This document shows positions 19,995 to 21,957 of a stretch of 21,957 bases of DNA, piece by piece. The stretch is from positions 1 through 21,957 of the IMG/VR virus record IMGVR_UViG_3300042471_000435. One strand, 5' to 3'. Both the position numbers and the translations under genes were made by a program. This stretch comes from a virus. The notes beneath the pieces are model-generated. The model was given only the letters and a program-made list of their open reading frames with translations. It was not told the origin of the DNA and did not search any database. Each line of letters opens with the position of its first letter. Position 1 is the stretch's first letter.

Positions 19995-21020
19995 ATGAGC
20001 ATAAAAGGCAATCAAAACGCTGCTACTTACAAAAAAGATATTGTTTTATCTTTTATAAATCAGTTCCCAAATGCAACTACAATGGCCATTTCACGATTAA
20101 TTTATGATAAACATAAATTAGACTTTAGTTCACTTGATACCGTAAGAACAAACGTTAGAAGATATAGAGGCGAAAATGGTAAAAATAGTTCACCTATTTC
20201 AAAAGCGGGAGTGCGTACTGAAACTCAAAAAAAACAATCTATGAGCAGAATAATTGATTTACCGGATAGCGATTACGAAAAATGTGAAGCCTTTATTATT
20301 CCAAAAGGCCAAAACAATATTTTAATTTTAAGTGACATTCATTTCCCTTATCAAGATAACAAAGCGTTAGAACTTGCTTTAAATTACGGACTTGAAAATA
20401 AAGTCAATACAATATATTTAAATGGTGATATTGCTGACTTTTACCAATGCAGTCGATTTACTAAAGACAGACGATTGAGAGATATGGCGGGAGAGTTAGA
20501 AATGGTTAGAGGATTTCTAAAAATGATGCAAGATTTATTCAAATGCCCGATTTACTATAAAATCGGAAATCACGAAAAAAGATACGAAGATTATTTGATG
20601 ATTAAAGCTCCGGAGTTATTAGGGATTGATGATTTTAAACTTGAACAACTTTTGCGATTTAGGGAGTTTGGTGTTACATTGGTTAAAGATAAGCAAATGG
20701 CAATGGCAGGAAATCTTCCAATACTTCATGGCCATGAGTGGTTTGGTGGATTTGCACCTCCTGTTAATCCTGCAAGGGGTTTGTTTATGAAGGCCAAAGA
20801 GAGTGCAATCGTAGGTCACCATCATCGCACATCAGAACACACAGAAAAGACTTTAAGCGGTGAAGTTACAACAACTTGGTCAACAGGATGCCTTTGCGGT
20901 TTGGAGCCGGAATATGCGCCTTATAATAATTATAATCATGGGTTTGCTCACGTTAAGGTAGCAAATGATGGAAATTATGAGTTAAAAAATATAAGAATAA
21001 TCAATTATAAAATTGTGTAA
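19995..21020 (+). CDS. HTH-fused calcineurin-like metallophosphoesterase
   Basis: 341 aa. The N-terminal about 65 residues (KGNQNAATYKKDIVLSFINQ, then a basic RTNVRRYRGEN) look like a winged or plain HTH DNA-binding part. The C-terminal part has all calcineurin-type metal motifs: SDIH (D114, H116), NGD (D145), GNHE (N192, H193), HGHE (H245, H247) and GHHH (H275-H277). Such enzymes hydrolyse phosphate esters using two metal ions and are found as phosphatases or nucleases. In a phage, roles in DNA processing, RNA or nucleotide metabolism are possible, and DNA binding by the N-terminus would suggest a nuclease. It is driven by its own promoter after the lysis terminator, so it may be expressed early or throughout infection. 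Confidence 0.88.
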   Translation: MSIKGNQNAATYKKDIVLSFINQFPNATTMAISRLIYDKHKLDFSSLDTVRTNVRRYRGENGKNSSPISKAGVRTETQKKQSMSRIIDLPDSDYEKCEAFIIPKGQNNILILSDIHFPYQDNKALELALNYGLENKVNTIYLNGDIADFYQCSRFTKDRRLRDMAGELEMVRGFLKMMQDLFKCPIYYKIGNHEKRYEDYLMIKAPELLGIDDFKLEQLLRFREFGVTLVKDKQMAMAGNLPILHGHEWFGGFAPPVNPARGLFMKAKESAIVGHHHRTSEHTEKTLSGEVTTTWSTGCLCGLEPEYAPYNNYNHGFAHVKVANDGNYELKNIRIINYKIV

Positions 21021-21160
21021 TGGAAAACAAAGTTCCGCCAAATCTTGATTCGCAAATTGAGAAAGTAGCGAATAAAATTTTAAGACAATATTTAAGAGGT
21101 CAAAACTGCGAAAAAACAAATGCTATTTATAGAGAATTATTAAAACAAAAAAATGGCTGA
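21020..21160 (+). CDS. Small hypothetical phage protein, 46 aa
   Basis: ATG 21020 overlaps the preceding stop (TAATG), and TGA at 21158-21160 overlaps the next start by 8 bases. The translation (MENKVPPNLDSQIEKVANKI start) is a charged helical peptide with one cysteine at residue 30. The two overlaps make a real gene likely. No family is recognised. Confidence 0.6.
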   Translation: MENKVPPNLDSQIEKVANKILRQYLRGQNCEKTNAIYRELLKQKNG

Positions 21161-21380
21161 TATAGCAAAGTGTTCAGACAGTTTATGTCCAAGTAAAGAT
21201 TACTGTTATAGGTTTACTGCTCCGGTTGGAATGTATCAAACTTATGGAGCATTTAACAGAGAAGAGGATGCAGAAAATTGTAATATGTTTTGGAGTAATG
21301 GTATATGTAAATATTGCGGTTTAGAAAATGATAATCACAAATTAAGTTGTACTACTTGTAAAATCCAAATTAACTTATGA
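21153..21380 (+). CDS. Cys-rich conserved phage protein with zinc-ribbon-like end, 75 aa
   Basis: The start MADIAKCSDSLCPSKDYCYR (C7, C12, C18) is a pattern common in Bacteroidota phage proteins that end near a cysteine-aromatic segment (here C43-N-M-F-W). This copy has an extra C-terminal segment with C52-x2-C55 and C66-x2-C69, which has the spacing of a zinc ribbon. Eight cysteines in 75 residues suggest one or two metal centres. It is coupled by overlaps to both neighbours. Function unknown. Confidence 0.7.
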   Translation: MADIAKCSDSLCPSKDYCYRFTAPVGMYQTYGAFNREEDAENCNMFWSNGICKYCGLENDNHKLSCTTCKIQINL

Positions 21381-21739
21381 TTAGTTTTAAATATTCAACT
21401 CGATTAGTTATTATACTAAAAAATATAGTAATTAAAATACCATTATCAAAAAGAGGATATTTGCAAGGATTAAACGAAAAATATATCTGGAATAAATATC
21501 AAAACATAGTACCTTTAGCAGAGTTAAAATGGATGTATTTAGGTATAGTATGCCAAAAAAGATATAATACAGTTACCGAAATACCAAAAGCAAATGTAAA
21601 ATATTTAAAATATTATGTAAGTGAATTTAATTTTAAAAACTGCGACTTATATAATTGTGAAAATTGGGGAATAGAAAACAATAAATATATTTTATTAGAT
21701 TACGGAATTAATAAAAAAATATCTAATCTATATAAGTAA
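21377..21739 (+). CDS. Miniature kinase-like protein, 120 aa
   Basis: ATG 21377 overlaps the preceding stop (ATGA). The segment NIVIKIPLSKRGYLQGLNEK (about residues 16-35) contains a K-I-P strand like the ATP-binding lysine strand of kinases, and NEKYIWNKY may correspond to the first helix. LGIVCQKRYN (about 55-64) resembles a hinge strand. CDLYNCENWG followed by LLDYGI (about 89-111) resembles the catalytic loop and the DFG segment. The glycine loop and the C-lobe seem missing, so activity is uncertain. A pseudokinase or a related nucleotide-binding protein is the likely alternative. Its stop codon is inside an 18-base palindrome. Confidence 0.5.
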   Translation: MISFKYSTRLVIILKNIVIKIPLSKRGYLQGLNEKYIWNKYQNIVPLAELKWMYLGIVCQKRYNTVTEIPKANVKYLKYYVSEFNFKNCDLYNCENWGIENNKYILLDYGINKKISNLYK

Positions 21740-21752
21740 CTTATAAGTTACT
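21735..21752. repeat. 18-base perfect palindrome at the end of the kinase-like gene
   Basis: AGTAACTTATAAGTTACT reads the same on both strands and contains the TAA stop codon (21737-21739). As RNA it gives a hairpin of about 6-7 pairs, but no T-run follows, so it is not a typical Rho-independent terminator. A dimeric protein binding site is a good alternative. Confidence 0.6.
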
Positions 21753-21767
21753 ATTCGTTTAAAGAAA

Positions 21768-21921
21768 GACCTTAAATTTTAGGGTTTATATTGACACAGA
21801 AAGTAATATCTTTGTCCCATATATTATCTATAATTGGGACTAAATGTATCTTATAGATAACATAATAACTTTAAAATGTGAAATATATATTAATACTAAT
21901 AGCTTATGAATTTTTAAGGTC
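21768..21921. repeat. Nested and interleaved inverted repeats in a non-coding region
   Basis: No ORF of useful length lies in 21740-21957. GACCTTAAA (21768-21776) is the reverse complement of TTTAAGGTC (21913-21921). Inside, GTCCCA (21814-21819) pairs with TGGGAC (21835-21840), and TTATCTATAA (21824-21833) pairs perfectly with TTATAGATAA (21851-21860). The two inner pairs are interleaved in the order of an H-type pseudoknot. A structured RNA, an operator cluster or an origin is possible; strong AT bias makes some pairing likely by chance. Confidence 0.45.
21807..21814 (+). promoter_or_regulatory. Possible Bacteroidota-type -7 box
   Basis: TATCTTTG fits TAnnTTTG. The closest TTG (21791-21793) is only 13 bases upstream, closer than the 19-base spacing of the other promoters here. 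Its last base begins the GTCCCA arm of the interleaved repeats. It would transcribe rightward out of the window into a region with no visible gene. Confidence 0.35.
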
Positions 21922-21957
21922 AAAATTGATTTGGCTATGGTATTATTTAATTAAAAA

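What the first reader, a model, noticed from the sequence alone, without database searches (positions are those of the whole stretch)
21735..21957. Non-coding right end with interleaved repeats and an 18-base palindrome
No gene is seen for about 218 bases, unusual in this compact genome. It contains an 18-base palindrome, a 10-base perfect inverted repeat (21824-21833/21851-21860), a 6-base repeat (21814-21819/21835-21840) in pseudoknot order with loops of 4, 1 and 10 bases, and an outer 9-base pair (21768-21776/21913-21921). It could be a structured RNA, an operator cluster or a replication origin. A -7 box at 21807-21814 would place the start site inside the first inner arm, which argues for DNA-level control if that promoter is real.
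Basis: partly seen in the sequence, partly recalled or inferred. Interest (0 to 1): 0.55.

Follow-up and report, generated by a model that had tools for sequence, protein, structure and literature searches.

The report
Phage copies of toxin-antitoxin operators
A short non-coding stretch of a phage genome carries, side by side, copies of the DNA switches that bacteria place in front of two of their own toxin-antitoxin gene pairs, without those genes, which may let the phage interfere with the bacterium's self-defence; that effect has not been tested.

Summary
The repeats are real, but the stretch is not one element. The last 80 bases are coding (GTG 21878; 27 other distinct open frames in relatives). 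The rest is three modules. (1) The 18-base palindrome contains GTAACTTATAAGTTAC; in 45 of 80 bacterial loci found by that 16-mer alone, a HigB- or HigA-like gene starts within 60 nt. (2) A conserved linker with a terminator-like hairpin. (3) The '6-base repeat' forms the arms of a 35-bp dyad (21810-21844), TTTNGTCCC-N17-GGGACNAAA, which in bacteria lies upstream of AbiEi antitoxin genes. A matrix from 17 bacterial sites ranks 21810 first in the window (28.4; next 15.5; random 22 kb 6.2, sd 3.4). The freely varying spacer of distinct intergenic phage dyads also fits: 16 of 16 at p<0.05 against 68% AT, 12 of 16 against 80% AT. AbiEi families: 0 of 32 dyad-bearing phage records. The pseudoknot is not supported as a conserved RNA. 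Best reading: phage-borne copies of two host toxin-antitoxin operators, probably decoys. Sequence identity about 0.9; decoy function, inferred, about 0.45.

The parts
21377..21739 (+). 120-aa ORF (accessory gene) whose stop codon lies inside the palindrome
   Evidence: 72.8% DNA identity to Flavobacterium elemo phages over 21389-21733; PHROG 4301, unknown function
21735..21752 (.). Module P: AGTAACTTATAAGTTACT, containing the HigBA-operator-like palindrome GTAACTTATAAGTTAC
   Evidence: identity with bacterial higBA upstream regions:
21753..21806 (+). Module T: rest of the conserved ~72-nt linker, with terminator-like hairpin 21767-21774/21780-21787
   Evidence: 32 copies aligned, 90% mean column identity, 95% of named cells paired, no two-sided changes
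21807..21814 (+).
   Evidence: consensus TAnnTTTG recalled, not from a call
21810..21844 (.). Module D: CTTTGTCCCATATATTATCTATAATTGGGACTAAA, AbiEi-operator-like 35-bp dyad with arms GTCCC 21814-21818 and GGGAC 21836-21840
21824..21860 (+).
21878..21957 (+). Start (GTG) of a ~30-aa hydrophobic ORF, open at the contig end

Best explanation
The stretch is an intergenic spot near the end of the phage's late operon that holds copies of the operators of two unrelated host toxin-antitoxin (TA) systems: P, the operator of HigBA-type (type II) operons, and D, the operator of AbiE-type (type IV) operons, with a terminator-like hairpin between them, but without the TA genes. Shown here: sequence identity, position upstream of TA genes in bacteria, no match of the tested TA gene families in the phage records and loci examined, and presence of D in several phage groups including one cultured lytic phage. 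Inferred: the host HigA and AbiEi proteins bind these sites, and the replicating phage DNA acts as a sponge. That would derepress the host operons so that fresh antitoxin is made, or would hold antitoxin (with toxin, for HigBA) on phage DNA, and so blunt TA-based abortive infection. Probability that the sites are TA-operator copies: about 0.9. Probability that they act as decoys: about 0.45.
For: In 45 of those 80 a HigB-like (37) or HigA-like (8) ORF starts within 60 nt of P; the query HigB matches Pfam Gp49 and the query HigA HTH_3. 70 of 80 P sites lie outside any ORF of 100 aa or more. D, site to gene: exact arms in 395 class genomes gave 5 sites in 3 genomes, 5 of 5 upstream of and next to DUF6088 or DUF6577 genes; PADLOC calls the four I gave it AbiEi; AbiEii toxin genes follow in the three loci tested, L390, L391 and L395. 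D, gene to site: of 17 DUF6088 genes from 198 genomes, 11 have the dyad with 4 or fewer mismatches upstream and a 12th (L441) with 6; the same model finds 8-13 mismatches in downstream sequence. Two of the 11 are from G031, already known to have D; without it, 9 of 15 plus L441. The middle arm base changes on both arms together (GTCCC/GGGAC, GTCGC/GCGAC, GTCAC/GTGAC), as in a protein-bound dyad. The spacer is fixed at 17. A matrix from 17 bacterial sites puts 21810 first in the window and finds one strong site in each of two 31-kb phage genomes. Of 16 distinct intergenic phage 35-mers all 16 have a spacer above the 95% null and 12 above the 99% null at 68% AT; at 80% AT 12 reach p<0.05 and 10 p<0.01; reversed-pattern controls 0 of 23. 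Phage L021's site matches the L427 operator (same 35 bases in L387) at 32 of 35. Searching 50,697 phage records with the bacterial consensus, the only full-length match is Tenacibaculum phage pT24 (two records of one phage), intergenic, E = 2e-4; it is described as lytic (PMC5502841, listing). Phage P copies mostly lack the -7 extension GTTACnTTTG: 32 of 46 bacterial sites have it, 2 of 70 phage P-like contexts (both strands counted). TA genes: DUF6088 0 of 32 and DUF6577 0 of 32 phage records, with the families found in bacteria; one HigA and one HigB query gave no tblastn hit at 1e-3 in the phage loci held.
Against: No binding, expression or infection data. The raw count is not enriched: 28 D stretches in viral contigs against 23 for the reversed pattern, and 5 against 5 hits in the 395 genomes. 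The case rests on spacer, context and matrix. The reversed-pattern controls come from contigs of 29-57% GC, mostly richer in GC than the D contigs, and against an 80%-AT null 4 of 16 spacers are not significant. In the gene-to-site test 5 of 17 genes have no such dyad, and if ten other spacers are allowed the best upstream mismatch counts are 3-9, so L450 and L441 are weak. The host of this phage is unknown. D is absent from 14 of 32 related contigs (duplicates collapsed by hand). 10 of 29 listed phage D sites keep a TAnnTTTG box in the bacterial orientation and 15 of 29 on either strand, and in one group of phages D lies right upstream of a gene, so there it may be a working promoter. In S. 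agalactiae the C-terminal domain of AbiEi alone gives antitoxicity (PMC3985639, passages), so the benefit of titrating AbiEi is not obvious. 35 of the 80 GTAACTTATAAGTTAC loci, 28 of them outside Bacteroidota or unassigned by title, have no HigBA gene starting within 60 nt.
Confidence: 0.5

Rival explanations
1. Hijacked regulation: the phage uses the host antitoxin/repressors as switches on its own genes. D and P sit in the late operon just upstream of the small ORF and spanin-like genes, so loss of antitoxin (toxin activation) would release phage genes, for example to lyse the cell early.
For: In the window D overlaps a -7-like box. In L261, L263 and L026 D lies upstream of the spanin-like gene or its leader ORF. 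In L364, L368, L372 and relatives D carries a -7 box upstream of a gene; 15 of 29 listed phage D sites have such a box on one strand or the other.
Against: In L284, L383 and L016 the modules lie at the convergent junction, downstream of the spanin-like gene. Phage P copies mostly lack the -7 extension. The order of modules varies (P-T-D, D-P-T, T-D-P).
Confidence: 0.25
2. Remnant: the phage lineage once carried higBA and abiE cassettes; the genes were lost and the operators remain.
For: The spot is a hotspot of gene exchange. In one genome higBA and abiEi lie 1.1 kb apart with P and D in front of them (L394).
Against: No TA gene was found by the family and tblastn searches. D recurs in several phage groups with arms and spacing kept. 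HigBA next to AbiEi is rare: HigA or HigB matches in 2 and P in 1 of the 40 (partly redundant) AbiEi loci checked (number recounted).
Confidence: 0.15
3. Structured RNA (pseudoknot) with a regulatory or protective role.
For: Both stems form in the window, L261 and L263, with one two-sided change T-A to G.T, and loop 3 varies.
Against: By my reading the six other aligned copies do not form the second stem; 54% of its cells pair. The position between TTT and GTCCC is a Watson-Crick pair in 6 of the 16 distinct 35-mers printed, a wobble in 4, a mismatch in 6 (counted by eye). The spacer length is fixed. The same dyad sits upstream of bacterial genes.
Confidence: 0.05
4. Terminator-bearing recombination linker only (comparable to T4 promoter-stem-loop cassettes); the resemblance to TA operators has no role.
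For: Module T with P is conserved while genes on both sides are exchanged at or near stop and start codons.
Against: Does not explain D or P matching TA operators, nor D in other phage groups.
Confidence: 0.1

Closest known systems
AbiE (type IV TA) operator bound by AbiEi, S. agalactiae (PMC3985639 and PMC7319586, passages seen)
   Same: Inverted repeat at the promoter of an abiEi-abiEii operon, near the start codon; bacterial D sites lie 0-11 nt, others 51-125 nt, upstream of the estimated start of AbiEi genes
   Different: Sequence and spacing differ (TGTTGCTTTTA-N27-TAAAAGCAACA there; TTTNGTCCC-N17-GGGACNAAA here); the phage copy has no abiE genes beside it
HigBA (type II TA) operator bound by HigA (binding recalled)
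   Same: Short palindrome directly upstream of higB- or higA-like genes in Bacteroidota
   Different: The phage copy lacks the adjoining -7 extension and the genes
Protein-binding DNA sponge / decoy sites (PMC7686491, start of abstract seen in a search listing)
   Same: Extra binding sites that would titrate a DNA-binding protein
   Different: That work builds synthetic sponges; here natural sites in phages, for host TA repressors, and untested
Phage escape from ToxIN by antitoxin-RNA mimics (recalled)
   Same: Phage carries a non-protein mimic of a TA part
   Different: That is an RNA antitoxin; here DNA operator sites
T4 promoter-stem-loop (PeSL) cassettes (recalled; one search gave listings only)
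   Same: Intergenic stem-loop linker at which genes are exchanged
   Different: Other sequence; no T4-type promoter; carries TA-operator palindromes

Membership tests
AbiE-type (AbiEi) operator | Same dyad occurs upstream of AbiEi genes in bacteria | tested here: met
   in the gene-to-site test 11 of 17 genes (a 12th with 6 mismatches), 5 without
AbiE-type (AbiEi) operator | Window site fits a model built only from bacterial sites | tested here: met
   28.4 at 21810, next 15.5, null maximum per 22 kb 6.2 sd 3.4; slightly below the lowest bacterial training site (29.1)
AbiE-type (AbiEi) operator | Lies in front of an abiEi-abiEii operon | tested here: not met
   no AbiEi-like gene beside the window site and no DUF6088 or DUF6577 match in 32 phage records; filed as an operator copy, not as an abiE locus
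AbiE-type (AbiEi) operator | Bound by an AbiEi protein | not testable with these tools
   needs EMSA or footprinting
HigBA operator | Same palindrome directly upstream of higB/higA in bacteria | tested here: met
   45 of 80 loci
HigBA operator | Lies in front of higBA | tested here: not met
   no HigA/HigB tblastn hit in the window or the phage loci held
HigBA operator | Bound by HigA | not testable with these tools
   needs EMSA
Conserved H-type RNA pseudoknot | Both helices kept with compensatory changes across homologues | tested here: not met
   second helix 54% of cells paired; formed in 3 of 9 copies by my reading
Intrinsic terminator | G+C-rich stem followed by a T run | tested here: inconclusive
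   hairpin conserved, but the terminator scan found none in 21000-21957
Replication origin | Initiator sites or skew switch not explained by gene orientation | tested here: inconclusive
   GC-skew maximum near the site coincides with convergent operons

The most novel reading that the evidence does not exclude
Phages of Bacteroidota carry decoy operators: copies, some of them without a promoter box, of the operators of several host toxin-antitoxin systems, gathered in small intergenic arrays, which titrate the antitoxin/repressors during infection and so disarm or reset TA-based abortive infection. This would be a class of counter-defence made of DNA sites instead of proteins or RNA.
Probability: 0.4. 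Interest if true: 0.9.

Novelty: new variant of a known kind. Interest (0 to 1): 0.8.

Why it matters
If the sites are bound, phages fight or exploit toxin-antitoxin systems with bare DNA sites, a route that protein-based searches for anti-defence genes cannot see. It gives a direct test of whether TA repressors sense or are misled by phage DNA, a sequence model (35-bp matrix and 16-bp palindrome) for finding such sites in other phages, and a candidate operator for two AbiEi families of Bacteroidota (DUF6088 and DUF6577) that Pfam still lists as of unknown function.

Tried and rejected
Rfam and tRNA scans: nothing. A pattern for the first pseudoknot half gave 23 viral stretches, by my rough guess about the number expected by chance; several matched the window only over the ~20 bases fixed by the pattern. 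The pseudoknot as a conserved RNA: rejected. Sigma-70 promoter scan: no excess (6 found, shuffles 9.1). Module D as an RNA stem: rejected, because the position between TTT and GTCCC is Watson-Crick paired in only 6 of 16 distinct 35-mers (counted by eye) and the spacer is fixed. First control for D (reversed pattern): 23 against 28 stretches; that pattern is itself terminator-like, so I used spacer scores instead. The L260 hit lies inside a 1760-aa ORF and scores only 15.7: set aside as chance and left out of the 16 distinct phage 35-mers. A third repeat in relatives (TGTATATTATANTATACAAAAA) gave 2 hits in 395 genomes; the two loci were looked at only as sequence and gave no hint of a TA operator: unexplained. 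The GTCAC-type dyads L397/L399 (3 mismatches) lie near an ORF that looks HipA-like to me (no family search), not AbiEi. Of the 17 DUF6088 genes of the gene-to-site test, L447, L448, L449, L451 and L452 showed no dyad within 6 mismatches and count as misses; DUF6088-like genes L432 and L434-L437, outside that test, also showed none. My notes (and earlier) said 12-13 of 17; the recount is 11 plus L441.

Literature: searches for AbiEi with operator/inverted repeat, AbiEi with decoy, DUF6088, operator decoy with antitoxin, AbiEi with Bacteroid and binding site, AbiE with titrat, decoy with repressor, HigA with operator and titrat listed no title or abstract that reports phage-borne TA operators. 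Only open-licence papers are held there. Listings were seen for all ten searches (too); passages were seen of PMC7319586 and PMC3985639 only.

Full report
What the window is. The window is a linear virus fragment of 21,957 bases from the late operon of a Flavobacterium-type phage: endolysin, metallophosphoesterase, then small genes. Eighty related viral loci (the best of 102) were fetched through the metallophosphoesterase, 76 through the 75-aa gene that follows it, and others through DNA patterns. In relatives the next genes are small accessory genes and a spanin-like lipoprotein (spanin-like is my reading of its sequence; its best PHROG match has no named function), after which genes on the other strand converge in most of the loci printed.

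The observation. All the repeats named exist. Shuffles show the 18-base palindrome to be unusual (11 of 1000), the 10-base repeat not (115 of 1000), and the pseudoknot order marginal (35 of 1000). The claim of 218 non-coding bases is wrong: the last 80 bases open a hydrophobic ORF of about 30 aa. The loci held contain 27 other distinct open frames of this kind, with a third-position bias over their 351 pairs (1431/878/2933). The real non-coding part is about 21740-21877.

Module P and the linker. From the stop codon of the upstream gene to about 21806 runs a ~72-base block found in many related contigs. An alignment of 32 copies that I chose has 90% mean column identity and 31 invariant columns of 74. 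It starts with the palindrome and holds a terminator-like hairpin with 95% of named cells paired but no two-sided changes; the terminator scan did not list it. Different genes end at its left edge and start at or near its right edge, so it lies at a site of gene exchange. L016 has it inverted at the convergent junction, and L130 has two copies.

Module P is a HigBA operator sequence. In 45 of the 80 a HigB-like or HigA-like ORF starts within 60 nt of it; in many it is 9 nt before the start codon. Of the 35 misses, 7 are titled as Bacteroidota. In bacteria the right arm often continues as GTTACnTTTG, which forms the -7 box TAnnTTTG (consensus recalled): 32 of 46 sites. In phages this continuation is found in 2 of 70 P-like contexts, both strands counted. 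One HigA and one HigB query gave no hit in the phage loci held.

Over 242 loci (1.67 Mb), perfect GTCCC...GGGAC pairs with spacers 3-35 fall on 17 in 10 contexts (one of them, L260, coding) and on 15 in one (L259); no other spacer occurs. With mismatches allowed, 17 has 21 contexts with 2 or fewer mismatches and no other spacer from 10 to 25 more than 3. The dyad patterns that fetched loci up to then allowed spacers 13-19 or 13-17, except that, which fixed 17. Perfect or near-perfect copies sit at or near the same place (beside the 75-aa gene homologue or the spanin-like gene) in distant relatives L261, L263, L264, L265, L262, L284, L128 and L045. Module order varies: P-T-D (window, L284, L383), D-P-T (L014 and others), T-D-P (L045).

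Beyond this phage family. A scan for the arms with N17 gave 28 viral stretches. They come from several phage groups: contigs of 9-117 kb with the dyad between an RIIB-like gene and the next gene, a 65-kb contig beside an exonuclease-like gene and near a terminase, and others. L260 lies inside a large ORF; in L372, L375, L382, L384, L380 and L381 my ORF caller put the site inside a short or over-extended frame, and I count these as intergenic. Excluding L260 there are 16 distinct 35-mers.

Module D is an AbiEi operator sequence. In 8 bacterial genomes tried, one Flavobacteriaceae genome (G031) had three exact sites, all upstream of AbiEi-like genes. In 299 genomes of its family only G031 had a site. 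In 395 genomes of its class, 5 sites in 3 genomes were found, against 5 hits of the reversed pattern in 4 genomes; all 5 real sites are upstream of and next to DUF6088 or DUF6577 genes (PADLOC AbiEi for the four tested), and AbiEii toxin genes follow in L390, L391 and L395, the three tested. A relaxed pattern in 48 mostly Bacteroidota genomes, which I had from the P scan, gave 11 sites in 7 genomes (control 2 in 2); apart from the two GTCAC-type sites of G621, the sites lie upstream of DUF6088- or DUF6577-type genes (the G722 gene was judged by its sequence, not by a family search). The reverse test is the least biased: among 17 strong DUF6088 genes from 198 genomes, 11 have the dyad (4 or fewer mismatches) upstream and one more has it with 6, while downstream sequence gives 8-13; five genes have none. 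Two of the 11 are from G031; without it the count is 9 of 15 plus one. With ten other spacers allowed together, upstream mismatches go down to 3-9. The arms vary together (GTCCC/GGGAC, GTCGC/GCGAC, GTCAC/GTGAC, GTAAC/GTTAC).

Independent scoring. A matrix from 17 bacterial sites gives the window its top score at 21810 (28.4; next 15.5). Random 22-kb sequences with its dinucleotide frequencies reach 6.2 (sd 3.4), maximum 15.4 in 60. The two 31-kb phage genomes G005 and G028 have one site each (35.2 and 32.6; next 3.8 and 1.7). The 17-base spacer, which the search patterns left free, scores above the 95% null in 16 of 16 distinct phage 35-mers and above 99% in 12 (68% AT); against an 80%-AT null 12 are at p<0.05 and 10 at p<0.01. 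Reversed-pattern controls: 0 of 23, but these come mostly from contigs richer in GC. Best identities to a bacterial site are 26-32 of 35 in the 29 phage sites listed; the window has 28. In related contigs with the 75-aa gene and the spanin-like gene on one locus the score is bimodal, 23 or more or at most 0.5; after collapsing duplicates by hand 18 contigs have the site and 14 do not (one of the 18, L383, had been fetched by the dyad, and one of the 14, L290, covers only 385 bases). With the bacterial consensus as query, the only full-length hit among 50,697 phage records is Tenacibaculum phage pT24 (two records), with TTTTGTCACAAATATATACTAAATTTGTGACAAAA between two genes. DUF6088 was not found in pT24 (DUF6577 not searched there), and the downstream gene next to the site, BPT24_062, matches nothing in Pfam or PADLOC.

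No AbiEi gene in the phages. DUF6088 0 of 32 and DUF6577 0 of 32 phage records with the dyad, while both families were found in bacteria. Many of the records are fragments.

Mechanism. Shown: two operator-type sites of two unrelated host TA systems stand side by side in a phage fragment without these genes beside them. Inferred: the host repressors bind. Which benefit follows is open. Titration would derepress the TA operons; for type II systems DNA-bound complexes might also be shielded from proteolysis (recalled). For AbiEi the C-terminal domain alone suffices for antitoxicity (PMC3985639, passages), so the sign of the effect cannot be predicted. The loss of the -7 extension at P in phages speaks for binding sites without promoter activity. 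At D the picture is mixed: 10 of 29 listed phage sites keep a -7 box in the bacterial orientation, 15 of 29 on either strand, against 9 of 11 listed bacterial sites. A regulatory use is the main rival and could be the truth in the RIIB-group phages.

Verdict. Not a structured RNA and not shown to be an origin: a small array of host toxin-antitoxin operator sequences plus a conserved hairpin linker and the start of a small gene. Identity of the sites about 0.9; decoy role about 0.45.

Noticed in passing
21377-21739: 120-aa ORF inserted at the palindrome, 72.8% identical in DNA to a gene of Flavobacterium elemo phages in another gene context; L128/L129 share it. It looks like an accessory gene moving between phages.
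   Followed up: partly
21878-21957 (open): Small hydrophobic ORF of about 30 aa, with 27 other distinct open frames in the loci held, overlapping or abutting the next gene; it may belong to the lysis module.
   Followed up: partly
L014, L009, L011, L108, L134, upstream or downstream of the linker: Recurrent AT-rich repeats (TGTATATTATANTATACAAAAA and TGTATAATATAAG) in the same intergenic spot; no sign of them as bacterial TA operators in one search; unexplained.
   Followed up: partly
L394 (bacterial genome G722): higBA with P and abiEi with D lie 1.1 kb apart in one island; L427 also has a HigA-like gene near abiEi.
   Followed up: partly
L397/L399: GTCACAAAT-N9-ATTTGTGAC dyad (3 mismatches) near an ORF that looks HipA-like; possibly an operator of a third TA type.
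   Followed up: no
G027 (62,650 bases; L262 and L284): Record holds two 75-aa-gene/spanin cassettes and two D sites; it may be two ~31-kb phage genomes joined in assembly.
   Followed up: no
G028 (L362/L363): 123-base repeat at both record ends: probably a complete ~31.5-kb genome with Erf-like annealing protein and NinG/Rap nuclease, which could drive exchange at short homologies.
   Followed up: partly
L364, L367, L368, L372-L375, L377, L378, L382, L384, L385: Phage contigs of up to 117 kb carry D between an RIIB-like gene (L364 and L368 tested) and the next gene; those checked have a -7 box in D, so there it may be a regulated promoter.
   Followed up: partly
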